Shown piece by piece: positions 15,897-42,300 of a DNA stretch of 64,000 nucleotides; the stretch's first letter is position 1, and each line of letters starts with the position of its first letter. The position numbers and the translations under genes are program-made. The notes under the pieces are model-generated. The model saw only the letters and a list, made by a program, of their open reading frames with translations. It did no database searches and was not told the DNA's origin. The DNA lies in contig CP043547.1 of assembly GCA_009664345.1 (NCBI GenBank), positions 3,376,709 through 3,440,708 of the forward strand, given 5' to 3'. This DNA comes from Planctomycetales bacterium 10988 (GTDB taxonomy: Bacteria; Planctomycetota; Planctomycetia; Pirellulales; Pb10988).

Positions 15897-15937
15897 GTGT
15901 AAAAAATCCCAACAAGGAAGAATAGGGGAAACGAGTT

Positions 15938-16876
15938 TCATGCAGCAGTAAGGATGAAGATCGTAGCCGCATTGAAACAGACATGATAGATAATGCAAGG
16001 CAGTATATTTTGCGTTCGGTGAAAGAGATAGCCTGCGATCATGGAAAAGAAGAAATAAACAATCATGAACGGTCCCCAAGCGATGTGCATCAAGGCGAAA
16101 AAGATCGAAGTGAAGAAGATCACAGGGAAAGTTTTTACATGATCGCCGAAAGTCTGGTCTACGCCGTCAGCCTCAGAATGGGTGGGATGTGAGCTTTGTC
16201 CAAAGACATCCATGAGCCAACCTTGCATATAGGCTCGATAGAACAATTCTTCCCAAATTGGAGTCAAGATGATTTGATAGCATAGAATAAAAAGAAAGTT
16301 GTCCGTTGGAAGTGGTAGGCCCGGTAGGTTGTTAGAATTCGAAAGATTTTCCAAGAGATCGAGTATCAGAAATTGTAATCCGCACAGCCCCGGAAAAGTT
16401 GTTAATATTACCAAAAGAACAAGTGAAATATCGTGTTCGCTTTGCTCTGATTTCCACCCAATCTCGGCCCAAGAGCACTTATGTAGATACCGTAGGTTGA
16501 GCATACTTAACAGGGATGCTGCGGCCATACTAATGATGAGTAAAACAAGACCGAGGGTGATGCCTCTATCAAATACATCCTTTCTATATTCCGCCGCACG
16601 TTCTCTATAATAATCTGAATAGAAATGCCTCAGGGCAGAGGGATCGACTACATAGTCTGACGGTTCGAAAATTGAAATGTACTTTATAAAGATTGTCTCG
16701 CCAGCATAGATTAACCCGGTTGGAAGGGCATAGTACCCTACTACAAACCAAAAGACGATAAACACAATTCCCCAGCTTACCGGTTCGGAGGGAACCGCTG
16801 GAAATATTTTTCTACAGAAAATGATAAAGATCAAAAACCCTACCAGTGAGCCAATGATCGCTTGGAACGCAAACAT
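15938..16876 (-). CDS. CPBP family intramembrane protease, middle of three paralogs
   Basis: 312 residues from the ATG at 16876, which follows GGAAGG by 7 nt; a TTG 27 nt upstream is an alternative. Hydrophobic throughout, with the CPBP motifs EELFYRAYMQGW, FALMHIAWGP and HVCFNAA. The loop around residues 60-110 is longer and more charged than in the paralogs (DPSALRHFYSDYYRERAAEYRK). The gene is clearly more AT-rich than its two neighbours, so it may have a different history or be under less constraint. Its stop overlaps a possible start of the last paralog (ATGA). Confidence 0.87.
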   Translation of the reverse strand: MFAFQAIIGSLVGFLIFIIFCRKIFPAVPSEPVSWGIVFIVFWFVVGYYALPTGLIYAGETIFIKYISIFEPSDYVVDPSALRHFYSDYYRERAAEYRKDVFDRGITLGLVLLIISMAAASLLSMLNLRYLHKCSWAEIGWKSEQSEHDISLVLLVILTTFPGLCGLQFLILDLLENLSNSNNLPGLPLPTDNFLFILCYQIILTPIWEELFYRAYMQGWLMDVFGQSSHPTHSEADGVDQTFGDHVKTFPVIFFTSIFFALMHIAWGPFMIVYFFFSMIAGYLFHRTQNILPCIIYHVCFNAATIFILTAA

Positions 16877-16958
16877 CGTTGAACCTTCCGAAAAATCTAA
16901 CAAATCGAACCTTAAAATTTCCTGTTAGATATCAAGTCGCATCCTTTTCTTTAGATAT

Positions 16959-17905
16959 TTACCAAGCAGTTAAAAGAAGGACTGCGGCGAGATTAAAACA
17001 GGCATGATAAAGAATGCAAGGTAAAAGACTTTGGGTACGGTGAAATAAATAACCGGTGATGATCGAGAAAAAGAAAAGTGTAATCGGTCCCGGCCATTGA
17101 TCGTAATGGAGACCGGCAAAGATGAGTGAAGTAATCATGATAGCCCCAAAGGTTTCCACTTGATCGGTTCTATCAAGGTCAAGCCTTTCCCCTTCGGGTT
17201 CGTCTTTTGACTCCGGCGAAGAAGTTTTTCGTTTTAAAACTTTCATCAACCAGCCTTGTAGAATTCTACGAAAGAATAATTCCTCCCAGAGCGGGGCGAG
17301 AACGACGGCAATCATTCCACAGTAGATCACATCAAAGGTATCATTATTCAAGATTAGAAATTTTTCGACCATTCCAGGTCTGACCGAGTCCCCTGAGATC
17401 AACTCCAGGGCGGTCTGCAATCCATGGAGTCCTGGATAAGTGATCGCAAACATCAACAGGCCGAATAAAAAGTCTCTAGCCACATTTTTGGATTGCCAGC
17501 CTAGGTCCGCAAGGCGATCGCCGGAGTACCGCAATCGCCAGTACATGACGGCAAGGAAAGAAAGAACAAGCGGGATGGGAAGGGCATAGACCGTCGCGTT
17601 GACAATGGCTTTCTCCGCATAGATGGCAAATTCTACGGGAGAGCGGCTTGTACTTTGGGCGAGGTCCAGATCGGGGCCGATGACATAGACAATCCCTACC
17701 CCCACGAGCAGTGGCAGAATGAGACAACTCATCAATAGCCAGAACACTGTAAACCAAGCACCCCAAGGGACCGGGCGGAACGGGATCATCGGGAAGGTTT
17801 TGCGAGCGATCCCCCAAAAAACGAAAAAGACGAGGATGGAGCCCCCATCGTTCCGAGTGCTAGGGTCATCTCGCCTTCCCACGTCATCGGTTCTTGGTCA
17901 AACAT
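16959..17905 (-). CDS. CPBP family intramembrane protease, first of three paralogs, apparent frameshift near the start
   Basis: The main open frame (from a GTG at 17882) carries intact CPBP motifs EELFFRRILQGW, FAGLHYDQW and HACFNLA and about eight helices. The natural start seems to be the ATG at 17905 in another frame: it follows GGAAGAG by 4 nt and gives MFDQEPMTWEGEMTLALGT. Joining the two frames at the five-G run (plus strand 17842-17846) by adding one G restores an N-terminus of exactly 49 residues up to PVPWG, the same as the last paralog. So either one base is missing by sequencing error in a homopolymer, or the gene is broken or uses slippage or the GTG start. Confidence 0.8.
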
Positions 17906-22331: not shown

Positions 22332-25300
22332 ATGTCGCAACTTCAAGAAGCATATTCACTCTTTTTGGGAATCATCTCCCAGCAGGGTCCGCTCAACTAT
22401 TATCAACTCTTGGGGTTGGAAAATCCCAATGCTTCCGCCGAGGAAATCACCCAAGCGGCCAAGCGGCAACTCGCCAAATTGAAGAAACATGCGGGTTCCG
22501 AAACATTGGCTGCGGAACGAAAGCAACTCGCTCAAGAGATCAAAAAAGCCTATGCTCTGCTCACAAATACTGAGAAGAAAAAGGTTTACGATTCTAGACT
22601 TCAGGAGACAACCCTCAGCGAAACGGACCGACCTACGCTCGCGATGGGGCCAAAGAGCGGTTCCACCGATACCATCCGCATCGAAAAAGAAGTCACCCCG
22701 GTAGAGGATGCTTCGCCTGCCAAAGAATCGGCAGAGATTCGTCAGAAGAAAAAAAGTCCCGCCCGGAAATCGTCGGAAATTGCCGGGAGTTCCAAGGATG
22801 CTGCCAATCGTTGGGGGGACGCCGAGGTTCTGTTGGCCGCTTCCAAGCCGGAGTTGCTTCGTGAAAAAATGATTCTCCTTTGCGGTGGAATTGCCGGGGC
22901 GATCGGGTTGGTGACCCTCGGCATTCTTTATTGGCAGCTCTCGGCAAGCGGCTACTTTGATGGTCCGCAAGTCGTTTCTGTTCCTGCTTTTGCGCCCGCC
23001 TGGCACGCGGAGGAGACAGAACAACATACCTTTCAGAGTTCAGCGGTTCCGTTGATCGATGTGCTTGCCCAAGTGGAGGAAGGGACGGGGCTTCAAGTGG
23101 AGCTTGAGCCTTCACTAGAGAATGGTCCCTGGAAAGCCCGTTCGGTTTCGGTGCAGGCGGAACAGCTCAGTTCGCCCCTTTTAGTGCAAGCAATCGCGGA
23201 GCCTTTGGAACTGACTTGGAAGCAACTCGGTCCCAAGCAATATCAACTCACCAAAATTACCGACTGGCGAAATGGTTGGGCCTTCCTTTCGGATGAAGGC
23301 ATGGAAAACCTCCTCGCCGGTCCGACTGCCTCCGAAGTCGATTCTCCTTCTATCGTTAGAACAAATGGATCAGGAAATTCCGTGCCGGTAGTTGCCTCGG
23401 AAGAAAATCAAACGCCCGGTTTTCAGAATTCGGAATCGATGAGCGAAGACCCCTTTGAGGCGATTTCTACAAGCTCCTTGATCTCCCATCCTGCTTGGGA
23501 ATCTGCGGCACTTAAGACTGTTGCCCTGGTGAAGATCGAGTTCGACAGCGGAAGAGAACAGCTCCATCATGGGCTAGTTGTTGGCTCTCCCTATTTAGTT
23601 GCTGTTGATGAAAGACACCTGGGAACGCAGCAGATCCGTTCCATCAAGGTGTATTTTAATGAAGGTGCCGGAGCCCTCCGCGAGGCTCAAGTTAACGGAA
23701 CCTTGGAGATGCCTAGTGGGGAACTTGTCCTTTTAAAAGTGGATCAGGCTTCGCCGGATGAACAATTCTTGACCATTGCCGCTGCGATGCCTCGTTCAAA
23801 AGAGGTCTATTTACTTCATGGAAGCATTCCCCGACTTCCTCTTTCCCGCTCAGAAAATTTCCAACTGTCACTCTCAATCCGAGACAATCCAGGTGCTTCC
23901 TCCGAAGATTGGGTCGTGTTTGCTGCTCAGCAGGTGGTTCCCAAGTTTCGTGTCTTGCTGGATGGGAAAGGAAACTTGTTGTCGTTGGCTTCCAAATATG
24001 GAACCTTTAGCCAAGCCAATCGAAATGTTGTTGTCCGCCCGATTGTAGGGTTACAAGGGGATTTGGCTTCGCTGGTGCATGCAGAACCCAAGCCGGTTAC
24101 CGATGCTGCTCCATCCAATCAAATCGCGTTGCCGGATGGGACGATTGTTCATTTGGATCAAATCTCTATTCCCTGGGAAAGGACGATGGCCTCGGTACCG
24201 ACGACCTATTCTCGGATTCGCGATGATCAGGGAAATCAAACCGCGGCGAATGTTCAGAGTGGAATGTTTGTCGGAACGGCGTTTGTCTATTCGCCCAGCG
24301 GAGAGCCGCGACTGATGGGGAATTACCAACCAGGTCAGCTTTTCAATCAGCCCCAGAGTTTCCGCCAGGGCCCGTTTTACTATGGAGATACAAGCGGCAA
24401 CTTGGTGCTGTGGGCCTATTACAATCAAGCTCAGCGGGACAGAACGTGGGTCTATTTCGAAGACGGCGAGCCTGCGATCATTCAACAATACGAATATGGT
24501 CAGCTTCGAAGGCAGTACCTTTGCGAAGACAGGCAGGTGACAAAGACGCTCAACGAATCGGACCCTTTCAGTTCGGACTGGGCTGTTTCAGCGCAGACCG
24601 TCTTGCAAGCCGAACGGCAAATCATGACGTTTGAATATCAGATGAGTTCAAAGTATCAAGCTCGTTTTCCCATCAATCCCGAGGTGCTGAACCAAATCCA
24701 AAGCAATCAAAACCTTGGACGAAACAATCCGGGCTTTACCGGAGGAATGGACCCCTTTTCCGACTTCACGCCAGAGCCGCAAGTTCCCGAGGGGCAAGGA
24801 GTAACCGATGGGTTGCAGGCACTTTTGGAGTTGGGGATTACTTCTGGAGGGATTGGAGATTTAGTCGACAAGCTAAAAACCTTCGGTATTCCTCCGACGT
24901 TGCCGGACGAGAACTTTTCGGAAGTCCTCTCTTCTTCCGAGGATTATTATGTCGCCGCGATGCGAATGGGGGCGGAGTTCAACGGCCTCGTGATGGCTTG
25001 GGATGAAGAAGGCACGCAACGATTTGCCGCGATTTATGAGAAAGGGGATCGAAGTGATCTCCTCATTTATGCCGATGCCAAAGGAACGATTCGCTACGCC
25101 GCCGAACATCAAAACGACCGGAAGAACGGTTGGGTGTGTCTCTTTGATGAAGCGGGACTTCCTTGGCTCGTCCAAGATTATGAAACTTATCGGGTGGATG
25201 AACAATGGTTTTGTAAAGAGGGAAAGCTTGTCCGGCATTACCCGAATCCAGAGAGTTTTGATAGCGACTTGAGGGTGGCTCGGGAGGCTTTGGCAGAGGT

Positions 25301-25490
25301 TGAACAAGAGGCAAAGATGTTGGAGATCGATTTGGAAAAAGGTCTCCGGGAGCAGGACGAAGAAGAGCGGATGGAGCGGGCGATCGAGAACAGTAAAAAC
25401 AGCCGGGATCAAATTACCCAACGTATGCGACAGCGTGCCCAAGATCGACAACAGAGGATTGGAGAGATGCAAGAACGTTTTTCAAATTAG
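22332..25490 (+). CDS. Large membrane protein: degenerate J-like domain, pseudo-protease-like region, C-terminal repeat
   Basis: 1052 residues. Residues about 20-90 resemble a J-domain (YYQLLGLENPNASAEEI, then IKKAYALLTNTEKKKVYDS), but HAG stands where the HPD needed to stimulate Hsp70 would be. One membrane helix at about 180-202. Residues about 230-305 look like an STN/secretin-type small domain. Residues about 395-570 follow a trypsin/HtrA order (VALVKIEF, GLVVGSPYLVAVDERHL, GELVLLKVD, LLDGKGNLLSLAS) without the catalytic His and Ser. Two diverged copies of a WVxF...QxYE...C unit occur near 695-770 and 925-995. The C-terminus is charged coiled-coil. Cytoplasmic J-part, outside rest. The ATG follows GGGGGGCCAGG. 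Function unknown. Confidence 0.7.
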   Translation: MSQLQEAYSLFLGIISQQGPLNYYQLLGLENPNASAEEITQAAKRQLAKLKKHAGSETLAAERKQLAQEIKKAYALLTNTEKKKVYDSRLQETTLSETDRPTLAMGPKSGSTDTIRIEKEVTPVEDASPAKESAEIRQKKKSPARKSSEIAGSSKDAANRWGDAEVLLAASKPELLREKMILLCGGIAGAIGLVTLGILYWQLSASGYFDGPQVVSVPAFAPAWHAEETEQHTFQSSAVPLIDVLAQVEEGTGLQVELEPSLENGPWKARSVSVQAEQLSSPLLVQAIAEPLELTWKQLGPKQYQLTKITDWRNGWAFLSDEGMENLLAGPTASEVDSPSIVRTNGSGNSVPVVASEENQTPGFQNSESMSEDPFEAISTSSLISHPAWESAALKTVALVKIEFDSGREQLHHGLVVGSPYLVAVDERHLGTQQIRSIKVYFNEGAGALREAQVNGTLEMPSGELVLLKVDQASPDEQFLTIAAAMPRSKEVYLLHGSIPRLPLSRSENFQLSLSIRDNPGASSEDWVVFAAQQVVPKFRVLLDGKGNLLSLASKYGTFSQANRNVVVRPIVGLQGDLASLVHAEPKPVTDAAPSNQIALPDGTIVHLDQISIPWERTMASVPTTYSRIRDDQGNQTAANVQSGMFVGTAFVYSPSGEPRLMGNYQPGQLFNQPQSFRQGPFYYGDTSGNLVLWAYYNQAQRDRTWVYFEDGEPAIIQQYEYGQLRRQYLCEDRQVTKTLNESDPFSSDWAVSAQTVLQAERQIMTFEYQMSSKYQARFPINPEVLNQIQSNQNLGRNNPGFTGGMDPFSDFTPEPQVPEGQGVTDGLQALLELGITSGGIGDLVDKLKTFGIPPTLPDENFSEVLSSSEDYYVAAMRMGAEFNGLVMAWDEEGTQRFAAIYEKGDRSDLLIYADAKGTIRYAAEHQNDRKNGWVCLFDEAGLPWLVQDYETYRVDEQWFCKEGKLVRHYPNPESFDSDLRVAREALAEVEQEAKMLEIDLEKGLREQDEEERMERAIENSKNSRDQITQRMRQRAQDRQQRIGEMQERFSN

Positions 25491-25680
25491 AGCTTTTTTT
25501 CTAAAACATTTAGATCTATCCGCGTTTGCTTTGCGTTATGCAATCTATAACGGAAACCAAGAGCCGGTGGTTAAAACCCGACAGAAACGGAAAAACCTTG
25601 GTAAGCGTGAATCTCAAGTAACCTTTGGCCACAAACTCAAAACAATCTCTTCTCATTTTCGATAGCGAAAGGCAAGTTCC

Positions 25681-26778
25681 ATGGGGAAGCGAGCGAGTAC
25701 CGCCCTTTCGGCCGCAGCATTGCTTTACGGAAGTCTCTTCTTGATCGAGTTTGCCTCGCAAGCCCAAGCTCAGGTGATTCCGTTGCCTTCGACGCAACGC
25801 CCAACGGTGATTTTGCCGGATGCCCGCGGAGCCACGGCGGCTTCAACGATCATTCATGCGAAAGCGGCCTTAGCGGTTGGCTTGGGACAATTGGCCGAAT
25901 CGCTTGCCATTGCACGGCGGCATCATGCGGCGGCGGTCGAGCATGAGATGCAAAATCGTCGCCAGTGGGTCGATACCTATTTTGAAATGCGGGCGGCCAA
26001 CCGGGCTTATCGCCGAGAAGAAGACCCGCCGTTCTTGGAACGAGCCGCCAAACGGCACGCCCAACGCGAACGCGTCATTTATGATCAAACGTATCTCATT
26101 CAAGGAAAAGAGATCAGTGCGGATGATCTCAATTTCCTCTTGCGGGAGTTGGCCATCGCGCCCTCTTTGGCATCGACGCTTCTCAATGGCGGCCTGGATG
26201 TCGGGCAAGAATCGCTCTCCCAAGACGAACTGAAACATATCCGCTTGACTGACGGGGCGATGAGCGAAGGCTCGCGGATGGTCTTCCGTGCCCACGATGG
26301 TCAGGTGTTGCGAACGGATTGGCCCTTCTTGTTGCGAAGTCCCGAATTTGAGCAGGCTCGGCTTCACTTCGAAGAGTTGCGAGATGCTTCCTTGGCGAAG
26401 CTGAAAGCGGGCGGCTCGCTGACTCCAGAGGAAGAGGCCAATCTGATGCTGGCTGTCGATGATTTGGCGACGCAGCTGGAATTGGAATACCCTCGCGAGC
26501 GGCGAACGAATGACTATTTAACGTTCTCTCGTTATAAGGGTGCCAAACTCTTTTTGCAGGAACTGGCCCTCGGGATCTATCGCTTGCTGGAAACCAATGA
26601 CCAAGAGGCGATCAGCGGCGGACTGGCCTTCGAAGGGGATAGCATCGGCGGATTGGTTTTGCATCTGTTGCAACAAAGTCTGGAGTTTGCCCCTCCGGAA
26701 GCCGGTGACGAGCGAGTTTATAAGAAGCTCTTTTTAGCACTGCGAGAAATGGCCCAAGCCGTCGATGGCCGTGGCTAG
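25681..26778 (+). CDS. Secreted alpha-helical protein, unrecognised
   Basis: 365 residues with a signal peptide (ALSAAALLYGSLFLIEFASQAQAQ, about residues 8-31). The rest is predicted mostly helical with many Arg/Glu/His residues (LAESLAIARRHHAAAVEHEMQNRRQW ..., LTPEEEANLMLAVDDLATQLELEYPRERR). No family recognised, no cysteines, no repeats. It lies 190 bp after the J-like protein and about 100 bp before the FHA-like protein on the same strand, so it is probably part of this group and located outside the membrane. The ATG at 25681 has a modest AAAGGCAAG upstream. Confidence 0.7.
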   Translation: MGKRASTALSAAALLYGSLFLIEFASQAQAQVIPLPSTQRPTVILPDARGATAASTIIHAKAALAVGLGQLAESLAIARRHHAAAVEHEMQNRRQWVDTYFEMRAANRAYRREEDPPFLERAAKRHAQRERVIYDQTYLIQGKEISADDLNFLLRELAIAPSLASTLLNGGLDVGQESLSQDELKHIRLTDGAMSEGSRMVFRAHDGQVLRTDWPFLLRSPEFEQARLHFEELRDASLAKLKAGGSLTPEEEANLMLAVDDLATQLELEYPRERRTNDYLTFSRYKGAKLFLQELALGIYRLLETNDQEAISGGLAFEGDSIGGLVLHLLQQSLEFAPPEAGDERVYKKLFLALREMAQAVDGRG

Positions 26779-26882
26779 ATTTCCGTTCCTGTTGCCGCTA
26801 TTCTCAAGGGAAAAGCGGGCTTTTGCCAAGCGGCGAGCCGGAGGGAGAAAATCCAAGGTCGCGGAACACCGAAAGAGATAAA

Positions 26883-28889
26883 ATGCCCATTGAATTGTTA
26901 GTCCTTTCCGGGTCGCGGCAGGGCGAACGGATCGAGCTTGATTCGGAAAAGATTACCATCGGCGATCAGGTCGATTGCTCTTTGCAGTTCGGCGCGAAGA
27001 CCGATCCGGCGGCTCGCGGTCGCTGCTTGGAATTGTATCACGAAACCGATGGCTGGCGGATTCGCTCGCTTGGCCAAGGGCTTTCCTTTCTGAATGCCGA
27101 TCCTCTTAGCCAAGATATGGCCCTGCGATCCGGCGATATGGTCCGGCTTTCCGCCAGTGGCCCGGATGTCCGCTTCAGTATCTTACGGCAAGCCTCCGCT
27201 GGAGGACAGAAAAGTGGTCCGGCCGCATCCAGCGCGGCGACTTCCACTTCAAGGGAAAATGCGGAGCCGATTGCTTCGGTCGAACCTCCTACTGCAAAGC
27301 CGACTGCCCGTTATTCAACTTCGCCGCCTCCGGAAAGTTCGCTGGATGATTTCATCGAAGCGAAGGTCCAGCGCGTCGCGGCCAAACCAAAATCCGAACA
27401 ACCCACCGTTGGGGTCATTCCCAAACAGGTTTTGGTAGCTGGTGGAATCCTTGCGGTTTTGGCCACCTGTTTCTTGGCTCTGGCGGTACCAATAGGATTT
27501 GGATTGATCGCCATTAGCGGGTTTTGGGATGAATCGGTAGCCGAGGAGAATGTCGTCCCGTTTGAAATTCTCATTCCCGAAGACTATGCCTTGAACTCGA
27601 TTCCGGCCTTGGAAGAAGGTAAGCTCTTCCAAGCTTCGGTCAAACTCGACGCCCCGCCGGAGTGGGGAAACCTGACCTATTCGGTGAAGGATGCTCCGGA
27701 CGGATTGCGAATCGATCCGGTCTCTGGCGAGATGACCTGGACGCCGAGCGAGGAAGACGGCCCTGGCGAATACGATCTCTTTTTGCATATCCTCTCCGAT
27801 GCCCCCATCGACGACAAACGCTATCCTTTCACGCTGAAAGTCAAAGAATCTCCCCAGCCGCCGGTCTGGCAACGCGTGCCGGATCAGGAAGTTTTGGCAG
27901 GCAAAGAGTTGCGGCTCACGGTCTCCGCCGAGGATGCCGATCTGCCCAAGCAAGCAATAAACTATAGTATTGTCGGCGAAAAACCCGAGGGCATGTTGCT
28001 CGATTCAAACACCGGCCTTTTGAGTTGGCTGACAAGTTCTGAAGATGCCGGAAAAAAATGGACCATCTTGCTCAAGGCGACCGATTCGGGAACGCCGCCG
28101 CAGTCGGCCCAGCAGTATGTCGATCTCTCGGTGGTTGCGGAAGAATCGAGCATGACCCCGAAGGCCGTTGCCGGCAAGAATCCTGCCGTCTGGCTGATCG
28201 CGGTTGATAGTCCCGAGGGGAAAGGGCTTTGGTCTTTGGCCACTGCCTGTGCCATTGAAGAACACACGTTCTTGACAAGTGCGACCGTCGCCGTGCAAGT
28301 GCAAACGTTTCAAGAACAAGGCTGGGTGCCCTATGCCGTGCGGCAGGATTTGCAAAAGAAAGTTCCCATTACGGAGCCGCTTGTCCACAAAGCCTTTGAA
28401 ATTTTGGCCGATCGCCCGACTGAACAACTCTATTTCGATCTTGGTTTGTTAATGACCGAGGACACGCTTTCCGAAACGCTCCAGCTTGCCACCGCGGAAG
28501 AACTGGGCACCTTGGAACTCGGCTCGCCGCTCGATGCCTTGGTAATTCCGCACGATGCCGATCGCTTGACCCGATTTGATCTTTTGCAGCCGGAACCATT
28601 TCTTGTGCAGCTTTATCAAGCGACGGCTTCCAGTGCCGAAGAAATTCCCGACGAGGCCAGGCCGGTCCTGTTGCATTTAAAAGGAGAGGTGCCGCCGAAT
28701 GCCTATGGCGGGGCGATTGTCAATGAAGCGGGGCATCTGGTCAGTATCTATGCGGAGCGATCCGGGGCCGAACCGGATGCCGACGACAACCGGATTCACT
28801 ACGGGCCGACTTTGGAAACGATCGCCTTTTGGCTGCAACAAAACAATCGTGAAATTTGGGTCACTCCCACTGCTGCCCCCTCGGAATAA
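26883..28889 (+). CDS. Membrane protein: degenerate FHA domain, two Ig/cadherin-like domains, pseudo-protease domain
   Basis: 668 residues. Start at 26883 gives MPIELLVLSG; an upstream in-frame ATG at 26823 adds 20 charged residues without homology to the fold. Residues 1-103 look like an FHA domain, but the phosphothreonine-contact residues (GR, SxxH) are not conserved. A membrane helix lies at about 183-212. Residues about 225-420 form two Ig/cadherin-like repeats (YSVKDAPDGLRIDPVSGEMTW and YSIVGEKPEGMLLDSNTGLL). Residues about 425-660 follow the trypsin/HtrA pattern with FLTSATVA where LTNAHV would be, FDLGLLM for the Asp strand, and NAYGGAIVNEAGHLVSIY where GNSGGP would be, so the His and Ser are lost. 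Likely a structural or binding protein in the envelope. Confidence 0.7.
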   Translation: MPIELLVLSGSRQGERIELDSEKITIGDQVDCSLQFGAKTDPAARGRCLELYHETDGWRIRSLGQGLSFLNADPLSQDMALRSGDMVRLSASGPDVRFSILRQASAGGQKSGPAASSAATSTSRENAEPIASVEPPTAKPTARYSTSPPPESSLDDFIEAKVQRVAAKPKSEQPTVGVIPKQVLVAGGILAVLATCFLALAVPIGFGLIAISGFWDESVAEENVVPFEILIPEDYALNSIPALEEGKLFQASVKLDAPPEWGNLTYSVKDAPDGLRIDPVSGEMTWTPSEEDGPGEYDLFLHILSDAPIDDKRYPFTLKVKESPQPPVWQRVPDQEVLAGKELRLTVSAEDADLPKQAINYSIVGEKPEGMLLDSNTGLLSWLTSSEDAGKKWTILLKATDSGTPPQSAQQYVDLSVVAEESSMTPKAVAGKNPAVWLIAVDSPEGKGLWSLATACAIEEHTFLTSATVAVQVQTFQEQGWVPYAVRQDLQKKVPITEPLVHKAFEILADRPTEQLYFDLGLLMTEDTLSETLQLATAEELGTLELGSPLDALVIPHDADRLTRFDLLQPEPFLVQLYQATASSAEEIPDEARPVLLHLKGEVPPNAYGGAIVNEAGHLVSIYAERSGAEPDADDNRIHYGPTLETIAFWLQQNNREIWVTPTAAPSE

Positions 28890-28956
28890 CCCCTTCTTAT
28901 GACATTCTTTGCATTTAGCTTGCAGAGAATGGGATCGATCGTGCCATGAGGAATTG

Positions 28957-31017
28957 ATGACCATGACGGCAGCAGCAGAGGCTCCCCCGATCGGGATTGA
29001 TCTAGGCACGACGATTTCGGTGCTGGCCACCCTCGACGAGTTGGGGCATCCTTTTACCTTGCTCAATGAAATTGGCGAGGCCCTGACCCCGAGTGCCCTT
29101 TTATTTGAAGAGGGAGAACTCGTCATCGGCCGCGAGGCCATTCGGGGTTCGGTCATGCTTCCGCAAGGGTTTGCCGATTGTTTCAAGCGGAATATGGGCC
29201 AAGAATTCTACGATCGCCCGGTGCTCGGCCAGCGGGTGCCACCGGAGATTCTCAGTGCATTTCTCTTGGAACGGCTGAAAAACGAAGCGACCGAACAGCT
29301 AGGCGAAGTCGGTCCCGCCGTGATTACCGTGCCGGCCTACTTCGATCAAACCCGACGGATGGCCACGCAGGTCGCCGGGCAACTGGCAGGGTGGGACGTC
29401 CTTGATATCATCAACGAACCGACGGCCGCAGCGGTCTATGTTTGTTTTCAAGATGGCTCGCTCACCCGAGGCGATGCCCAACCGCGTCGCGTGCTCGTCT
29501 TCGATCTCGGCGGCGGAACCTTCGATGTGACGTTGCTGGAAATCAAAGGCCGGTCGTTGCGGACACTCGCGACCGACGGCGAAGTGCAGCTTGGCGGAAA
29601 GGATTTTGATGAACGCCTAGTCGATTTTCTGGCTGAGGAATTCGCCGCTGCCCACGGCATCGACCCGCGAAGCGAACCGGAGGACTTTGCCCAACTTTGG
29701 ATTCAAGCCCAAGAGGCCAAGCATGCCCTGAGCCAAAAGCGGCGGACCTTTGTTTCGATGGCGTTCGCCTCCGTCCGGCATCGGGTGGAATTGACGCTCG
29801 ATCAGTTTCAGGAAATGACCGAAGACTTGCTCGAACGCACCCAAACCGTGACTTCGATGGTCCTCAATCAAGCCAGCCTGAAATGGTCGGAGGTCGATCA
29901 AGTCTTGCTCGTCGGTGGCGGTTCTCGCTTGCCGATGGTTTCGCAACAGTTGGAGGAACTCACCGGAAAGAAGCCGCAACGGGTCCGTTCCCCCGATGAA
30001 GCCGTGGCTCAAGGCGCCGCCCTTTATGCCGGCATGACCACCGGCCGCCGCTGGCAGGGGGAACCGTGCGAGTTGGTGAATGTCAATTCGCATTCGCTCG
30101 GCGTCATCGGCAAGCATCCGCGAACAGGTTACAAGACCAATGCGATTCTCATTCCGAAGAATAGCCCGCTTCCTTGCCAGGCGAGTCGTGTCTTTCGCAC
30201 CATCAAACCCAATATGAAATCGGTCCAAGTCCCAGTCGTCGAAGGCGAAAGCGAACGCCCCGAAGCCTGCATTCCATTGGGGCAGTGTCTCGTGCATGAC
30301 TTGCCGGATGGGCTCCCCGAGCGTTCAAAGATCACCGTGACCTTTCGCTATCAGCCGAACGGGACGTTGGATGTCTACGCGGATATTCCCGAAATCCACC
30401 GTTCCGCGAAAGTCAAAATTCAGCGAACTCGCTCGCAGCCTTTGGAAACGCTCGACGTTTGGCGAGAGCGGCTCTTGGGCACTTCCCCGGCAAAACCGAA
30501 AGCGATATCTGCTGCCAAGAGTGCGGCTTCCTCTGTTCCACAAACAAAGCTTAAAGTGGAGACTTCTTCGCCTCCGCCGGAACCGACCTCCTCAGAGCCG
30601 CTCGTGGATCGTTCGGTGAAACCTGCTCCGACGGCGAATTCGCAACATCTATCAAAGGTTCTTCAGCAGTTGGATGACCGTTGTGTTCAACTCGGTCGGC
30701 TCTGTGCTTCCTTGCCACTCCCAGCGGAACTGGCGGGCAGTCAAGCGGAACTCGAAGCGGCCTTTGCCGAACAACGCCAAGCGAGTCTCGATTTTGAACA
30801 AGCCAGCAAAGCCCTGCAATCGATGCCGCCGGCCTCGGTCCTGCCGACCGTTAAGGCGAACTTGGCCAAAGCCCGGGAGTCCCGCAATCGGGCCGATGAA
30901 CGAGTCCGCTTCGCCCTCCTGGTCCTTGGTCGTTCCTGTGCTGCCGCGGATGCGGTTCCCCCCGGAGGTGCAAGCCTCGTCTTAGAGATTAAGCGGTTGC
31001 AAGCGGAGTTGGGGTGA
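28957..31017 (+). CDS. Divergent stand-alone Hsp70 (DnaK-like) chaperone
   Basis: 686 residues. The ATPase domain has all Hsp70 motifs: IGIDLGTTISVLA, VITVPAYFDQTRR, INEPTAAAVYV, VFDLGGGTFDVTLLEI, VLLVGGGSRLPMV. The substrate-binding beta part is shortened (VNVNSHSLGVIG through IPEIHRSAKVKIQR). A Ser/Pro/Lys-rich linker of about 60 residues (about 505-570) leads to a helical segment of about 110 residues that is not a typical DnaK lid. The ATG at 28957 follows GAGG and is preferred over one 48 nt upstream. It is cytoplasmic, lacks grpE or dnaJ next to it, and sits within the J-like/FHA group, suggesting service to that group rather than general proteostasis (inference). Confidence 0.9.
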   Translation: MTMTAAAEAPPIGIDLGTTISVLATLDELGHPFTLLNEIGEALTPSALLFEEGELVIGREAIRGSVMLPQGFADCFKRNMGQEFYDRPVLGQRVPPEILSAFLLERLKNEATEQLGEVGPAVITVPAYFDQTRRMATQVAGQLAGWDVLDIINEPTAAAVYVCFQDGSLTRGDAQPRRVLVFDLGGGTFDVTLLEIKGRSLRTLATDGEVQLGGKDFDERLVDFLAEEFAAAHGIDPRSEPEDFAQLWIQAQEAKHALSQKRRTFVSMAFASVRHRVELTLDQFQEMTEDLLERTQTVTSMVLNQASLKWSEVDQVLLVGGGSRLPMVSQQLEELTGKKPQRVRSPDEAVAQGAALYAGMTTGRRWQGEPCELVNVNSHSLGVIGKHPRTGYKTNAILIPKNSPLPCQASRVFRTIKPNMKSVQVPVVEGESERPEACIPLGQCLVHDLPDGLPERSKITVTFRYQPNGTLDVYADIPEIHRSAKVKIQRTRSQPLETLDVWRERLLGTSPAKPKAISAAKSAASSVPQTKLKVETSSPPPEPTSSEPLVDRSVKPAPTANSQHLSKVLQQLDDRCVQLGRLCASLPLPAELAGSQAELEAAFAEQRQASLDFEQASKALQSMPPASVLPTVKANLAKARESRNRADERVRFALLVLGRSCAAADAVPPGGASLVLEIKRLQAELG

Positions 31018-31197
31018 AGGCGGGGAAACGCCGCGCAGCGGGGCTTTATCAACACTAGGGTAATGGATCGTGTTCGGTTTTCAGTGTTCGGTATTTGGGG
31101 GTGAACTTTTATTGGCAGGTGATTACGGACTTGCTTATAAAGCAAAAAGTGTTTTTTAAATCAAAGATTCGACTTTCAACTAATGTAAACTAAAGTC

Positions 31198-31260
31198 CCC
31201 CGAACCCCGAACCCCGAACCCTGAACCCCGAACCCTGAACCCTGAACCCTGAACCCTGAA
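31198..31260. repeat. Heptamer tandem array CCCYGAA, nine units
   Basis: Nine units of 7 bp: CCCCGAA three times, CCCTGAA, CCCCGAA, then CCCTGAA four times. About 120 nt earlier, GTGTTCGG occurs twice (31071-31091) and is the reverse-complement flavour of the same GAAC/GTTC theme. The array occupies the 364-bp gap between the Hsp70 and transglutaminase genes, which holds no gene. Heptameric arrays of this sort are known as mobile or slippage-prone noncoding repeats in several bacteria; no function is implied. Confidence 0.9.
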
Positions 31261-31381
31261 TTGACTTTCAAACTTACCAATGAACCATTAAACTTAAGAA
31301 TGTAAATTTGCTTTCAATTGATTCGTTTTGAAATAAAAAGCCGTCTTAACGCATCCCCAGCGACCCAGAGGAGGTTTTCTG

Positions 31382-34300
31382 ATGTCGCAATCACGCCCCC
31401 CTCGTCCGCCGTCATCCAATCAGCCGCCGCGTGCCGCAGGTCCGCCGCCGGGACCTCCGTCGCCGAATCTTCCTCCACAAAGCCAACCGCCAGCTCCGCC
31501 TGCTCCCCCGGCGCCGCCGCAAGCAGGCCCTCCGGGAATGCCGACGCCTCCGCCACCGGCCCCACCCGTTGCTGGCCCGCCCACCGCGAAACCTGCCATG
31601 GCTCGCCCCGCAGTCGCACGCCCGGCGATGGCCCAACCTGCCGGAAGTTCGCTGGAGCCGCCTTCGGAATTTGCCTTTGCTTCGGAAGGATCAAGCATTG
31701 CCGAAATGGCTCGGAAAAAACGAGGCTTCGGCTGGATGACGTACGTTGTCCTGCTTCTTTTCTTGGGGGCGATCGGGACAGGTTTGTACTTCGGTTTGGT
31801 TTCACCAACGATCACGATTGCCGAGTTGGAAGAAGCCCCGCCGCAAGTGGCCAAAGAGATGGAGGCCTTCGTCTTTGCCGTTCCTTTCAAACTTTCCGAG
31901 GGAATTTCCGATGAAGACCTCACTTTTGAAATGCTCGAAGGTCCCGAAGGAGCTGCCATCAACGATATGACGGGCCGTATCACCTGGACCCCGCAAGAGG
32001 AACAGTCTCCCGGCACGCACCTCGTCAAAGTGCGGCTCAGTGTCAAAGGTCAGCCCGATCTGACGAACGAACGGAGTTACCAGCTTGTCACCGAAGAGAA
32101 CAATCAGCCGCCAACAATGGAGGCCATTCCCGATCAAGAAATCCGTTCCGGCGAAACTTTGAAGCTGAAGTTCGCGGCCTCGGACCCGGACAATCCCCCG
32201 GCGGAGATGGAATTCTTCTTGAAAACGAAGAAGCTGACCGGGATGTACCTCCACCCCGAAACCGGCGAGTTTGAATGGAAGGTCATGCCTGCCGAAGGCG
32301 AACGGATCGAGACGATCACCGTTTCCGCGAAGGAAGCCTTGCGGGATGGCCTTTCGGCGGAGCGGACGTTCTATGTCAAAGTGCTGCCGATGCTTTCGGA
32401 GTTGGAAGAGTTGGTCGCGAAGCTCGAAGGCCCGGAAGTGAAGATCGGTTGGACGAATGAACTCAATGCGACGCTTCCGTTGCGTGGCACGATGTTCCAA
32501 GCGACCGTCAATAGCGAATCGCTGAAAGCTTTCGAATATTTCACCGCCGATCAAGCCGCGGATGAATCTTTGGATATCGCACCGAACGCCGTGATGGTCG
32601 CGGGAGCCGAGCCGCAATGGGCGAAGTCCCCGCACTTTTACCGCTATGATCGTTGGATTTTTCTCTACGAAGGCGACTCCGCCCCGGTCTTGTCTGCTTT
32701 GCGAAGGGAACTCGGCGATCCAATTGCTGAAGGGAAACCTTCCGACCCCTCGGCGATGATGGCCAAGTCGGAAGCCGATAGCGAAACCCCCGCCGGCCCG
32801 GATGCCTTCGATGATCGGGTGCTTGATCTTTTCAAAAAGAATCGGCTGCTGAGCACCCGCGAGTATCCGACGTTGCGAAAGATTGCCGCCGATCGCTTTG
32901 CGGATAAGTATTCGAGTGAGATCGAGATGGGGCTTGGGGATTCCCAAAGTCCGCTACGAAATTGGCTGAAGGAACATCCGGAAATTCAAGAGGAACTTTA
33001 TGTCGCCCTCGATCCGGAACTCGATCAAATCGTGCCCGCCCTCACGGTTTTCCGTCAGCTCTACGAGGCCTTTCCCGAAGAGATGGAGACGTATGGCGAC
33101 CTGGCGATTGCAACGGCGGTGACTTGGGATAATCCCGATGCAGTCTATTCTTACGAGCGTCATCAAGAGCGGACCCGCAGCACGTTGCCCGAGACGCCTC
33201 AACTCGATGCCGTCGAGAATTTCCGCTATTTCCTGGAAAAAGAACGGATCATGCAGGGGAGGGCGAAGTTCCTGCCGTGGGAGTTCTTGGTCCATTTGAT
33301 CAATCACCGGACGCCGCTCGATGAACGTGATTGGGCTGTGAAACAGTATTTGCCGAAGCGGACGATGTTCGGAGAATGCTACGAAAATGTGCCCTATGAT
33401 ACAGAGATGCTTACCAGTGGGGGCGAAGTTTGCCGCTTGGCGAATAAAGAATATACGCTGCCTAACTTGGTGAACTATGGTGGCGTTTGTGCCATGCAGG
33501 CGGATTTCGCGGCCCGGGTTGGGAAAAGTCTCGGCGTTCCGGCGGAATATGTTCGCGGCGAATCCAATTCGCAAGGGCTGCACGCTTGGGTCATGTGGGT
33601 GGAAGTGAAGAGCGTCAACCAAGGGAGCATCAAGTTCACTTTGGAATCGCACGGCCGCTATAACATCGATAAGTATTATGTCGGCACGTTGCTTCACCCG
33701 CAGACTGGCCAGCAGTGGACCGATCGCGAATTGGAACTTCAACTGCAAACGGTCGGGCTGGACCCGAAAGCCGCCCGGCATGCCGAACTGGCGATGGCCA
33801 CCTTCCCGCTCATTCAAAAAGAGGAAGAGCTGAACGTCACCGAGCAGTTGCAATTTTTGATCAAAGTGCAGCAGCTTTCGCCGGGCAACCAAGCAGCGTG
33901 GTTCCAAATTGCCGAGATGTGCCGCCGGGGCGATTTCAGCCGCGAGCATACGCGACAATTGACGCCGCTGTTTGAGCGTATGTTCCGCACGTTCGCCCAG
34001 TTTCCCGATTTCACTTGGAAGGTCTTCCCCGATCTGGCCGAGTTCATCGAAAACTTCAAGACGAAGATGACGACCTATGAACGGCTTGTCGATCTTTACG
34101 AAGCTCAAGAGCGTCCGGACCTGGCGGCGGAGGCCCGCTTGAAGATGGCTGATCTTTACCAAACGAATAATATGATCCCCGAGGCAATTGCGGGCCTCGT
34201 CGTTACGGTCAAGAAATTCCCCGACGAAGGGCGATACGTTCCGCAAATGCTCGACCGGATTGAATCGCTGGTGCAAACGGACCAGAGCCTCCGGCCGCAA

Positions 34301-34483
34301 ATGCTCCAGTTCTATCAAGAATTAGTACCGAAAGTTCCCCGCTATCGGGGTGATACGCCCAGCCAGTATTGCATGGAGCTTTACGAGCGGGTGATTCGCC
34401 TCTTCAATCAATCAGGGCGTGCTCGCATTGCTGAGGTTTATCAACAAGAACTGGATCGAATGCGGATTAATCAACCTCAGTAA
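31382..34483 (+). CDS. Membrane-anchored transglutaminase-like protein with proline-rich cytoplasmic tail
   Basis: 1033 residues; GAGGAGG precedes the ATG. Residues 2-90 are over half Pro/Ala (PPAPPAPPAPPQAGPPG type), cytoplasmic. One membrane helix at about 117-141. Residues about 150-345 carry two Ig/cadherin-like domains related to those of the FHA-type protein (INDMTGRITWTPQEE, MEAIPDQEIRSGETLKLKF). A transglutaminase-like papain-fold core follows at about 650-780: Cys703 in GGVCAMQ, His734 in GLHAWVMW, and a possible Asp in YNIDKYY. The last 220 residues are helical, tetratricopeptide-like. Such domains cleave or cross-link peptides; here it would act in the periplasm. It follows the Hsp70 gene after the heptamer array and ends in a terminator. 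Confidence 0.8.
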   Translation: MSQSRPPRPPSSNQPPRAAGPPPGPPSPNLPPQSQPPAPPAPPAPPQAGPPGMPTPPPPAPPVAGPPTAKPAMARPAVARPAMAQPAGSSLEPPSEFAFASEGSSIAEMARKKRGFGWMTYVVLLLFLGAIGTGLYFGLVSPTITIAELEEAPPQVAKEMEAFVFAVPFKLSEGISDEDLTFEMLEGPEGAAINDMTGRITWTPQEEQSPGTHLVKVRLSVKGQPDLTNERSYQLVTEENNQPPTMEAIPDQEIRSGETLKLKFAASDPDNPPAEMEFFLKTKKLTGMYLHPETGEFEWKVMPAEGERIETITVSAKEALRDGLSAERTFYVKVLPMLSELEELVAKLEGPEVKIGWTNELNATLPLRGTMFQATVNSESLKAFEYFTADQAADESLDIAPNAVMVAGAEPQWAKSPHFYRYDRWIFLYEGDSAPVLSALRRELGDPIAEGKPSDPSAMMAKSEADSETPAGPDAFDDRVLDLFKKNRLLSTREYPTLRKIAADRFADKYSSEIEMGLGDSQSPLRNWLKEHPEIQEELYVALDPELDQIVPALTVFRQLYEAFPEEMETYGDLAIATAVTWDNPDAVYSYERHQERTRSTLPETPQLDAVENFRYFLEKERIMQGRAKFLPWEFLVHLINHRTPLDERDWAVKQYLPKRTMFGECYENVPYDTEMLTSGGEVCRLANKEYTLPNLVNYGGVCAMQADFAARVGKSLGVPAEYVRGESNSQGLHAWVMWVEVKSVNQGSIKFTLESHGRYNIDKYYVGTLLHPQTGQQWTDRELELQLQTVGLDPKAARHAELAMATFPLIQKEEELNVTEQLQFLIKVQQLSPGNQAAWFQIAEMCRRGDFSREHTRQLTPLFERMFRTFAQFPDFTWKVFPDLAEFIENFKTKMTTYERLVDLYEAQERPDLAAEARLKMADLYQTNNMIPEAIAGLVVTVKKFPDEGRYVPQMLDRIESLVQTDQSLRPQMLQFYQELVPKVPRYRGDTPSQYCMELYERVIRLFNQSGRARIAEVYQQELDRMRINQPQ

Positions 34484-39320: not shown

Positions 39321-42300
39321 TTATTGAATTCCTAGGCCGCTGAAAAGTTTATCGATTTTTTCCGCTTCACTATAAAATTCATCGACCTCTTCCCACCAGG
39401 ATTTTTTCTGTTCCGAATGCTCGGGGAGGGTGTCTTCGGGAGCTTCTTCCGATTGAACCTCTGCGAAGAAAGGCTGTGAGAATGGGCTTGGGAGAGAATC
39501 GGTATTCGTGAGCCCTCCTGCGATGAAAAGTCCACTTGTTTCCGAGGAAGGTCCAGAGTAGAAGTTTGCCAAGTCCGCTAAATCCACGCCGCTAAACGCT
39601 CGGGTGTGCGGGCCTCCCGTGGAACCGGGAACCGTGAGGATATCGAAGAACTCATCCTGATTGATATCGGCGGAAGCGACGCGGACCCCGCCGGTGAAAG
39701 AGGGGTCATAAGCATAAAAGTTCTGCAAGAGCGAAGCATCCGCTGAACTGAAAACTTTCACATGCGGCCCGCCGCCTGCTCCGGGAGAGGTGATGATGTC
39801 ATCAAGGCCATCGTTATCGACATCGCCCGCTGCCACAAAAATCCCGGTGAGAACATTCGAGGCATAGGCATAAAAATTCGTGGCGGCTCCGGTCATTTGC
39901 TCGCCGGTCATTCCACTAAAGACGCGAACGTGCGGCCCGCCGCCTGCTCCGGGTCCGGTGATGATGTCCGCAAAGCCATCGCCATCGATATCCCCGGCGG
40001 CAACGCGAACCCCGCCGGTGAAGCTGGGATCATAGGCGTAAAACTCGGTGATTATCTCTCCGGTGAGACCGTCGAAGACTTTCACATGGGGGCCACCTCC
40101 GGCATCGGCAGCGGTGATGATGTCGTCGCGGCCATCATTATTCACATCGCCGACAGCAATATAGACTCCGCCCGTGAAACTGGGATCATAGGCATAAAAA
40201 TCCCGGATTCCGCCAAAAGTTAAATCTCCCGGGGTGGAGCTATCAAAGACCGAAACTCTCGGACCACCCCCTGGTCCGGCGGCGGTGACGATGTCGAGGA
40301 TGCCATCCCCATTGATATCCCCGGTCGCCACACGAATGCCTCCGGTGAAGGCTTTCGTATAAGGATAGAAGCTTGCCAACTCGGTGCCTGATTCATCAAA
40401 CATTCGTACGAATCCGGCAGTACCCGCATCGGTCCCGGTGACGATCAGCGGGGTTTTTGGTTCCAAATCGACCAAGAAAAGCTCTTTGCCATAGTCGGCA
40501 GTTCGTGCGGCAAAGAAGAGCGTTCCATTGACGTTCGCGAGATACTCTGGGTCCGCACCATAGGTGGCTTGCTCAAGTTCATAGGCAAGAACCGTCCCTG
40601 CGGAAGTTCCATCCGTTTTCCAGATATCCTCAATATCCTCACTTGATTCAGCGACGAAGTAGAGCGTTCCGTTTACTTCCTCAAAATGGCTGGGATAGGA
40701 ACCCTGGCTCCCCTCGTGGATATCTTTAATAAGCATCGTTCCTGCCGAGGTCCCGTTGCTCATCCACAATTCGCTGCCATTGATGCCGTCAGTCGCTGCA
40801 AAAAAGAGGGTGCCGTTAAAATTGTAGAAATGAGAGCTGCTGGAACTGTTGGCCCCTGGGCGGATGTCCGCAACGAGCATCGTTCCGGCAGAGGTTCCAT
40901 CGCTTATCCACAGCTCTTGGCCATAGGAACCTTCATTCGCTCTGAAAAAGAGGGTGCCATTCACATTGGTCAGTCGAGAGGGAGAAGAGTCGTCGGCCCC
41001 TGGGCGGATATCCACGACAAGCATGGTTCCCGCGGACGTTCCATCGCTCATCCATAATTCTGAGCCATGGCAACCATCATTTGCTTCGAAAAAGAGGGTA
41101 CCATTCACATTGACAAGGTTATCTGGCCAGGAATTTTCCGAATCTGGGTGGATGTCTGCAACGAGCATGGTCCCCGCGGACGTTCCATTGCTCATCCATA
41201 GCTCTTGGCCATAGGAACCGTCATTTGCTTTAAAAAAGAGGGTTCCATTTACATTGACGAAGCTACTTGGATTCGAGGATTCAGTGCCGGCATTAATGTC
41301 CTTAACTAACTGTGTCCCTGCCGAAGTTCCATCACTTTTCCAAAGCTCGTAGCCATAGCTTTCTAAGTGAGCCGAGAAGAACAGCGTCCCGTTGACATTG
41401 GTCAGATGGTAAGTGTAGCGATTGTCGGTCGTGTTAAAGGCTCGGATCATTTCCGTTCCGGCAGTCGTCCCATCGGATTTCCACAGGGTATATCCATAGA
41501 GACCGGTATCTGCCACGAAGAACAATGTCCCGTTGACATTGGTGAGTTCATAAGGGTTGGAATCGGCTGTACCATCCGCGATATCGGCCAAGAGGAAAGT
41601 GCCTGCGGAGGTTCCATTAGAGATACGTGGTTCATGTCCAACCACGCCATCGGAAGCGCCGAAAAAAAGTTGCCCATTGAAATTCGTGAGCGACGTGATA
41701 TTCGTCTTCGCGGAAGGACCATCAATCAGCTCAAAGGCAAGGATGGTTCCCGCGGAGGTTCCATCACTCATCCATAATTCTTCCCCGTATTCTTGGGTCG
41801 TTGCTGAGAAGTAGAGTGTTCCGTTGACGTTGATGAGTTCGTTCGGGTAGGAACCATCGGTTCCCGGTTCAAGGTCTTTGACCAACACCGTTCCGGCCGA
41901 CGTTCCATTGGTCATCCAGAGTTCTGAGCCATAGCTGCCCTCCCTCGCTCTGAAGAACAGCGTGCCATTGAGATTGACAAATTCGTCAGGGGATGAGGAG
42001 TCGCTACCGCTTTGAATGTCTTTGACCAGCACTGTTCCGGCAGAGGTCCCGTTACTCATCCAGAGTTCATTTCCGTAGCCCCCAACAAATGCCGTAAAAA
42101 AGAGGGTCCCGTTGACATTCGTTGGTTCGGAAATACTGGTGGAACTTAGACCACTATTCATGTCTTTCACCAGTTGCGTCCCTGCGTAGGTTCCATCACT
42201 TTTCCAAAGTTCAAATCCATAGCCTTGAGAATAAGCACGGAAGAACAGCGTCCCACTGACATTGGTAAGTGCATTCGGGGAACTACCGCTACTACTGCCT

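What the first reader, a model, noticed from the sequence alone, without database searches (positions are those of the whole stretch)
22332..34483. Possible envelope-spanning assembly: J-like, FHA-like, Hsp70 and transglutaminase proteins encoded together
Five same-strand genes: a degenerate J-domain membrane protein, a secreted helical protein, a degenerate-FHA membrane protein, a stand-alone Hsp70 with a non-standard C-terminus, and a membrane transglutaminase with a proline-rich cytoplasmic tail. Three have one membrane helix each, and two share related Ig/cadherin-like pairs. No grpE or true dnaJ is present. A dedicated chaperone with membrane partners is a plausible undescribed system.
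Basis: partly seen in the sequence, partly recalled or inferred. Interest (0 to 1): 0.68.

Follow-up and report, generated by a model that had tools for sequence, protein, structure and literature searches.

The report
Hsp70 module spanning the cell envelope
In some planctomycete bacteria an Hsp70 chaperone gene sits in a recurring set with genes for a membrane protein, a secreted protein and often an atypical membrane J-like protein, and the contact between J protein and Hsp70 that is otherwise treated as invariant appears to be chemically reversed, suggesting a separate chaperone system built for the envelope.

Summary
The five genes are real but not one unit. S (exported) - FHA-TM-pseudo-S1C - Hsp70 recurs in Pirellulales: the FHA-Hsp70 pair in 6 genomes, S directly upstream in 4 (a fifth fits across a contig break), a J-like gene beside the set in 4. 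The transglutaminase is a passenger: three full-architecture relatives stand without J, S or FHA. Elsewhere S and FHA-TM genes sit with Ser/Thr-kinase genes and keep the FHA NG motif (13 of 14); with Hsp70 it is lost (0 of 6). The J-like domain lacks HPD. Of 150 listed J-like profile hits 36 lie within 3 kb of a listed Hsp70 (0.63 expected). In all 36 pairs Hsp70 has Asp at DnaK R167; the J-like domain has no HPD and Arg/Lys at the HPD His (35 of 36). E. coli DnaK, HscA, HscC and the organism's own DnaKs keep R167. Best reading: a membrane-tethered Hsp70/J-like system, insulated from DnaK/DnaJ by a charge swap, serving an envelope module that elsewhere uses kinases. Gene sets and residues are shown; mechanism is inferred.

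The parts
22332..25490 (+). J: HPD-less J-like domain (about residues 1-100), membrane helix (about 181-199), extracytoplasmic part ending in two copies (641-783, 881-1043) of a tail domain shared with two other cluster J proteins and one kinase
22482..22493 (+). codons of K51-K52-H53-A54, where DnaJ has HPD (alignment uncertain by one or two residues)
25681..26778 (+). S: exported (by eye), mainly helical protein of unknown fold; relatives in the order and elsewhere in the class, usually beside an FHA-TM gene
26883..28889 (+). FHA protein: degenerate FHA (1-102), Pro-rich linker, membrane helix (about 176-214), cadherin-like pair (about 242-425), trypsin-like S1C domain without catalytic His and Ser (about 431-644)
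28957..31017 (+). Hsp70: intact ATPase signature and SBD-beta, no usual lid, C-terminal helical domain (about residues 560-686) kept in 5 of the 6 FHA-cluster Hsp70s (the L040 frame stops before it)
29404..29406 (+). codon of Asp150, equivalent of DnaK R167
30079..30081 (+). codon of Asn375, equivalent of DnaK D393 in the interdomain linker (NVNSHSLG for DVTPLSLG)
31198..31260 (.). 9 copies of a 7-bp repeat (CCCTGAA) in the 365-bp gap between Hsp70 and TG
31382..34483 (+). TG: Pro-rich N-terminus, membrane helix, cadherin-like pair, transglutaminase-like core (sub-threshold), TPR-like tail; neighbour, not a conserved member

Best explanation
J-S-FHA-Hsp70 encode an envelope-spanning module; TG is a lineage-specific neighbour. 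Outside the membrane, the cadherin pair and dead S1C domain of the FHA protein, exported S and the tail of J form the sensing or assembly face (inferred). Inside, the FHA protein and the J-like domain face a special Hsp70. In a wider set of planctomycetes S and an FHA-TM protein (mostly with the S1C domain) are encoded with further FHA and Ser/Thr-kinase genes and keep canonical FHA motifs; in this lineage the partner gene is an Hsp70 and the FHA motifs are gone (shown by gene neighbourhoods and residues; the direction of the exchange is inferred). The J-like domain probably docks on this Hsp70 through a reversed salt bridge (J Arg/Lys - Hsp70 Asp instead of J Asp - Hsp70 Arg), which would insulate the system from the cell's own DnaK/DnaJ; the membrane J-like protein would thus switch Hsp70 on at the membrane, to remodel the FHA complex or its clients when the outer domains report a change (inferred).
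For: FHA-TM-pseudo-S1C directly upstream of the Hsp70 in 6 genomes (window, L040, L041, L042, L090, L108); ORFs overlap start-on-stop in L042 and L090 and for the short FHA-TM forms L093, L094 (mechanical starts). S upstream in window, L042, L090, L108; in G097 S, a J-like gene and the FHA start lie at the end of one contig, the rest of FHA plus Hsp70 begin another. Cluster Hsp70s one branch, 99/96. J tail shared with J of L090 and L140: E 8e-7 and 2.6e-12 for its two copies among 5466 ORFs, with a profile built without the window. S tree: 5 Hsp70-context and 13 kinase-context S proteins on opposite sides of a branch, 98/99. FHA NG motif in 13 of 14 kinase-context and 0 of 6 Hsp70-context FHA-TM proteins. 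J-like profile hits: 36 of 150 listed within 3 kb of one of 150 listed Hsp70s, 0.63 expected. In those 36 pairs: Asp at R167 36/36, Q378 replaced 36/36, HPD 0/36, Arg/Lys at the His33 column 35/36; 30 of the 36 J-like frames have a membrane stretch by hydropathy. All 6 cluster Hsp70s: D167, Y378, R217, N393; E. coli DnaK, HscA, HscC keep R167, Q378, D393. The R167-D35 contact has genetic and structural support (PMC7289447 passages and section 14; PMC13012618 passages; PMC8215388 passages). A kinase-Hsp70 fusion exists in G108 (L105).
Against: No interaction, expression or phenotype data. Asp167 marks a whole non-DnaK Hsp70 clade (57 of 63), also in loci with no J-like hit in the stretch read (for example L044-L046, L049-L052), so swap and adjacency may go back to one or few ancient events. 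114 of the 150 listed J-like hits are not within 3 kb of a listed Hsp70 (both lists capped). In the window J is three genes from Hsp70, and its HPD region aligns ambiguously; one J-like domain (L106) has HPM there. G063 and G009 have no J-like gene beside the cluster, G009 no adjacent S. S precedes the FHA gene in the Hsp70 sets but follows it in the kinase sets except L134, so this is no simple in-place replacement. L108 keeps a kinase gene next to its Hsp70; L205 has kinases but an FHA without the NG motif. S has no known fold.
Confidence: 0.4

Rival explanations
1. The HPD-less J-like domain is not an activating co-chaperone. Like mitochondrial Pam16/Magmas (degenerate J; recalled), it tethers or inhibits, and the Asp-type Hsp70 runs without J stimulation. 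The residue pattern is an old clade trait that followed loss of J control.
For: Changing the HPD His or Asp abolished stimulation in every system tested (PMC8215388 passages); altering R167 or its partners raises basal ATPase and makes JDP stimulation ineffective (PMC7289447 section 14), so natural Asp167 could mean J-independence. Asp167 also occurs in Hsp70s with no J-like hit in the stretch read.
Against: A basic residue at the His33 column in 35 of 36 and Asp167 in 36 of 36 neighbours look maintained, not drifting; adjacency is tight (35 of 36 within 1 kb).
Confidence: 0.28
2. The Hsp70 is an assembly chaperone only: it folds or inserts the FHA/S envelope complex during biogenesis and has no signalling role.
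For: Overlap of FHA and Hsp70 frames; SBD-beta kept; S looks exported and the S1C domain lies beyond the membrane helix.
Against: Kinase-context sets have related S and FHA-TM proteins and no Hsp70 hit in the stretches annotated, so these parts do not need a linked Hsp70 in general; a kinase-Hsp70 fusion exists.
Confidence: 0.2
3. It is a planctomycete offshoot of the GAP1-N2 or ternary conflict systems, which also combine HSP70, DnaJ-FNIII proteins, kinases, trypsins and membrane Ig-like domains.
For: PMC7159879 section 29 describes HSP70+GrpE with DnaJ-FNIII proteins and an alternative kinase theme; a passage says that nearly all trypsin domains in effector position there are inactive.
Against: No GTPase, MoxR or vWA domain in the Pfam scan of ten window genes; no PADLOC match below E 0.004 for the five proteins. 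Absence was not tested in the related loci.
Confidence: 0.07

Closest known systems
HscC with membrane J proteins DjlB/DjlC (E. coli)
   Same: [quoted passage not shown] gene order)
   Different: HscC keeps R167, Q378 and D393; no FHA, S1C or S gene is annotated beside it
GAP1-N2 GTPase-centric systems (PMC7159879, section 29 read)
   Same: HSP70, DnaJ fused to extracellular-type beta domains, and a kinase alternative
   Different: GTPase/GAP1 core and GrpE not seen among the window genes scanned
Planctomycete Ser/Thr kinase - FHA - FHA-TM(-pseudo-S1C) - S gene sets (found here; no published name found)
   Same: Related S and FHA-TM-pseudo-S1C proteins
   Different: Kinase partner, FHA NG motif kept, S usually after the FHA gene
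RsgI9 S1C-NTF2 (7sjy) and Rv3671c (3k6y)
   Same: Trypsin-like domain; Foldseek matches at E 3e-8 and 2.4e-7; both membrane-bound with the domain outside (recalled)
   Different: No FHA or Hsp70 link known to me; that RsgI9's S1C is inactive is recalled
Pam16/Magmas
   Same: Degenerate J domain in a membrane-linked Hsp70 machine (search listing only; details recalled)
   Different: Mitochondrial; partner Hsp70 canonical (recalled)

Membership tests
Hsp70 | NBD with DnaK K70, E171, T199 | tested here: met
   kept in 6 of 6 cluster Hsp70s; Pfam 354 bits
Hsp70 | R167 and linker D393 of the J-controlled latch | tested here: not met
   D and N in 6 of 6
Hsp70 | SBD-alpha lid | tested here: not met
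   best stretch ends at profile position 506 of 599; another C-terminal domain instead, without a Pfam match above cut-off
J-domain protein (DnaJ type) | HPD motif | tested here: not met
   0 of 12 aligned, 0 of 36 neighbours of Hsp70
J-domain protein (DnaJ type) | homology to J domains | tested here: met
   PDB phmmer E 1.2e-5; Pfam just under cut-off for the protein, over it in the genome search
J-domain protein (DnaJ type) | stimulates Hsp70 ATPase | not testable with these tools
   needs biochemistry
FHA domain | phosphothreonine pocket motifs | tested here: not met
   0 of 6 Hsp70-context proteins keep them
S1C/Trypsin_2 peptidase | trypsin-like fold | tested here: met
   Foldseek on the window protein; Pfam Trypsin_2 27.7 against 27.6 for L042, none for the window protein
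S1C/Trypsin_2 peptidase | catalytic His and Ser | tested here: not met
   absent in 7 of 7 aligned, judged by eye on the alignment
Transglutaminase | Transglut_core match | tested here: inconclusive
   14.0 bits against cut-off 23
HscC-DjlB/DjlC | HscC residues at the J interface (R167, Q378, D393) | tested here: not met
GAP1-N2 system | GAP1 and GTPase genes | tested here: not met
   none among ten window genes scanned; related loci not scanned for it

The most novel reading that the evidence does not exclude
Planctomycetes run a second Hsp70-J system beside DnaK/DnaJ in which the supposedly invariant salt bridge is reversed (Asp in Hsp70, Arg/Lys in an HPD-less, mostly membrane-bound J-like domain). 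One lineage has wired it into an FHA/pseudo-protease envelope module that elsewhere works with Ser/Thr kinases, turning a phospho-signal module into a chaperone-output module.
Probability: 0.38. Interest if true: 0.85.

Novelty: new variant of a known kind. Interest (0 to 1): 0.7.

Why it matters
The HPD Asp - R167 contact is described as invariant on both sides (PMC7289447 section 14). A natural, paired reversal would show how a cell can run two insulated Hsp70 systems and would give a ready orthogonal pair for testing how J domains trigger Hsp70. The apparent exchange of kinase for Hsp70 as the partner of one membrane module, with loss of the FHA pocket motifs, would be a clean case of output swapping in bacterial signalling.

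Tried and rejected
Rejected: (1) a trypsin-like domain in J (hhalign probability 0.5%). (2) S as a BAG-like exchange factor: Foldseek E 0.64, not significant, and S looks exported. (3) A claim about DnaK D481: Asn there also occurs in DnaKs of other bacteria (alignments), so it was dropped. (4) TG as a member of the module. (5) An anti-phage defence reading: no PADLOC match of note for the five proteins. (6) Asp167 as a trait of non-proteobacterial Hsp70s in general: the three actinobacterial Hsp70s looked at, the best plasmid hits, keep Arg. (7) Co-transcription could not be tested; promoter and terminator scans were at chance level.

Rows dropped and limits: loci L109-L112 duplicate G063, G097, G009 and G148 and were left out of the Hsp70 counts. 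L205 was not in the S tree; L133, L135, L113, L138 and L200 were in it without a label. L091 (partner gene off the contig) keeps the FHA motifs and L113 (likewise) lacks them; neither is in the 13 of 14 or 0 of 6 counts, nor are the short FHA-TM proteins L093 and L094, which lack them. Of the 14 kinase-context FHA-TM proteins, L134 and L205 gave no S1C hit. The test uses only the 150 rows that each listed, a mean genome size of 5.5 Mb, and no correction for relatedness. The J-like profile also finds ordinary DnaJ weakly: the weakest of the ten own-genome hits but the last in rank is one; the 150 listed rows are far stronger (E 6e-34 or better), but HPD was read only in the 36 pairs and the 12.
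Full report
Place. The window is part of a 6.65-Mb single-contig genome; the 20 held relatives drawn were of the same order but other families. Named records of the nearest cluster carriers are MAGs labelled Pirellulales, Planctomycetaceae or Planctomycetota. The genome holds eight strong Hsp70 matches, three J proteins with HPD and DnaKs with Arg at position 167.

The five genes. J (1052 aa) has an N-terminal J-like domain, one membrane helix and a large part beyond it. S (365 aa) looks exported and is mainly helical, with no Pfam family above cut-off and no significant fold match. The FHA protein (668 aa) has a degenerate FHA domain, a membrane helix, two cadherin-like domains and a trypsin-like S1C domain; Foldseek finds cadherins, RsgI9 S1C, Rv3671c and MucD. 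In 7 of 7 aligned S1C domains the catalytic His and Ser are missing, judged by eye. Hsp70 (686 aa) has an intact ATPase signature but, in place of the lid, a linker and a C-terminal helical domain kept in 5 of 6 cluster Hsp70s. TG (1033 aa) shares the cadherin pair with the FHA protein (E 1.9e-16).

Conservation. With the window Hsp70 as query, 116 of 117 genomes of the order had matches; the best were G097, G009 and G063 at 53-55%. In all three an FHA-TM-pseudo-S1C gene lies immediately upstream. A profile of that protein over 246 genomes gave strong matches (E below 1e-29) in 6 (G000, G063, G009, G097, G148, and G022, the last for the S1C part only); most weaker rows are the FHA part alone, while G021, G062, G121 and G236 match the S1C part. 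One genome-contig scan returned 6 loci, of which L108 (NIOZ-UU7) and L113 were new. S stands directly upstream of FHA in window, G063, G148 and L108; in G097 the order is broken by contig ends but fits. J-like genes flank the set in window, G148, L108 and G097 (there on the S contig), not in G063 or G009. The tail domain of J occurs twice in the window J, in the J proteins of G148 and G097, and behind the membrane helix of a kinase in G004. The six cluster Hsp70s form one branch, 99/96. In family f6 a short FHA-TM protein overlaps the start of an Hsp70 gene (L093, L094), and in G023 a kinase-like protein with an FHA-like stretch and membrane helix precedes one.

Kinase or Hsp70. S matches (E up to 0.001, some weak) occurred in 16 of 146 genomes of the order and 16 of 392 of the phylum, all in the same class. 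Of the S loci outside the Hsp70 sets that I fetched, 12 have an FHA-TM-pseudo-S1C gene and a kinase hit (L097, L136, L137, L139, L141-L145, L201-L203); L134 and L205 have a kinase and an FHA-TM gene without S1C hit. Others: L133 and L135 have S without such neighbours on short contigs; L138 and L200 have the FHA genes with no kinase hit next to them; L204 has two S with separate FHA genes; L206 has S alone; L113 has S after a degenerate FHA-TM-pseudo-S1C gene and a J-like fragment, with the contig ending there. The S tree puts 5 Hsp70-context and 13 kinase-context proteins on opposite sides of one branch, 98/99, with L133 and L135 on the Hsp70 side. The FHA NG motif is kept in 13 of 14 kinase-context proteins (L205 the exception) and 0 of 6 Hsp70-context ones. 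Against a simple replacement: S precedes FHA in the Hsp70 sets but follows it in the kinase sets except L134, and L108 still has a kinase gene convergent with its Hsp70. A kinase-Hsp70 fusion exists in G108. The direction of change is inferred from the wider spread of the kinase form.

TG. In 20 relatives no other genome matched. In 392 genomes of the phylum 40, the own one included, had TG-region matches; three others (G499, G548, G597, 43-53%, all family f21 of another order) share membrane helix, Ig pair, core and tail, without a J-like, S or FHA hit in the 20-kb stretches read; G499 has the start of an Hsp70 gene about 7 kb away. The 365-bp gap before TG holds a 7-bp repeat array. TG is therefore set aside.

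J-like domain and Hsp70. The J-like profile matched in 96 of 117 genomes, 1-20 hits each, the weakest possibly ordinary DnaJ. Of the 150 hits listed, 36 lie within 3 kb of one of 150 listed Hsp70s (0.63 expected; Poisson 9e-50, which ignores relatedness), in 33 of 65 genomes. I read all 36 pairs. Hsp70: D at R167 36/36; H, Y or F at Q378 36/36; K70, E171, T199 36/36. J-like: HPD 0/36; R 32, K 3, Q 1 at the His33 column; A 31, S 3, Q 2 at the Asp35 column (a gap next to the motif leaves a residue or two of doubt). Among the 12 J-like domains, 10 have R or K there, one Q, and L106 has His (HPM). Over 66 Hsp70s, R167 is kept only by three canonical DnaK-type proteins; of the 63 others 57 have D, 4 G, 1 N, 1 gap. 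E. coli DnaK, HscA and HscC keep R167, Q378 and D393; three actinobacterial Hsp70s keep R167 and the DnaK linker. In DnaK, R167 and Q378 are the partners of DnaJ D35 (PMC8215388 passages); R167H suppresses DnaJ D35N, and the contact is treated as invariant (PMC7289447 passages and section 14; PMC5519331 passages; PMC13012618 passages). Both sides have changed here in a complementary way.

Literature. I found no description of this module or of the reversed contact in the listings of searches of the held library, which lacks most subscription journals; the bacterial J-protein survey of Barriot et al. 2020, cited in PMC8215388, I did not look up. PMC11032199 (passages) treats planctomycete kinases but, in the passages seen, none of these gene sets.

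Verdict. Module: well supported for FHA-Hsp70 with S, less evenly for J, not for TG. Reversed J-Hsp70 interface: strong residue pattern, untested function. Signalling role at the envelope: inference.

Noticed in passing
window 56453-61372 (+): A second HPD-less J-like + membrane protein (1639 aa) with PEGA and laminin-G-like domains and sub-threshold beta-propeller matches.
   Followed up: partly
window 62650-63990 (-): Reverse transcriptase gene at the window end, best PADLOC match RT_XIII (E 9e-162).
   Followed up: no
L044, L045, L049-L059: Tandem Hsp70 pairs in all 13 of these loci: one with a C-terminal membrane helix, one short (about 510-560 aa); in four genomes of family f13 (L053, L055, L056, L058) the membrane member has Gly at R167 and an altered NEP motif.
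   Followed up: partly
L105 7966-10800 (+): Single ORF fusing a Ser/Thr kinase domain to an Hsp70.
   Followed up: partly
window 31198-31260: Nine copies of a telomere-like 7-bp repeat CCCTGAA between Hsp70 and TG.
   Followed up: no
window 14877-17882 (-): Three consecutive multi-membrane proteins that look like CAAX-protease relatives by eye.
   Followed up: no
window 39321-43022 (-): Large protein with many 'SDGTSAGT'-type repeats and FG-GAP repeats; planctomycete extracellular motif below cut-off.
   Followed up: no
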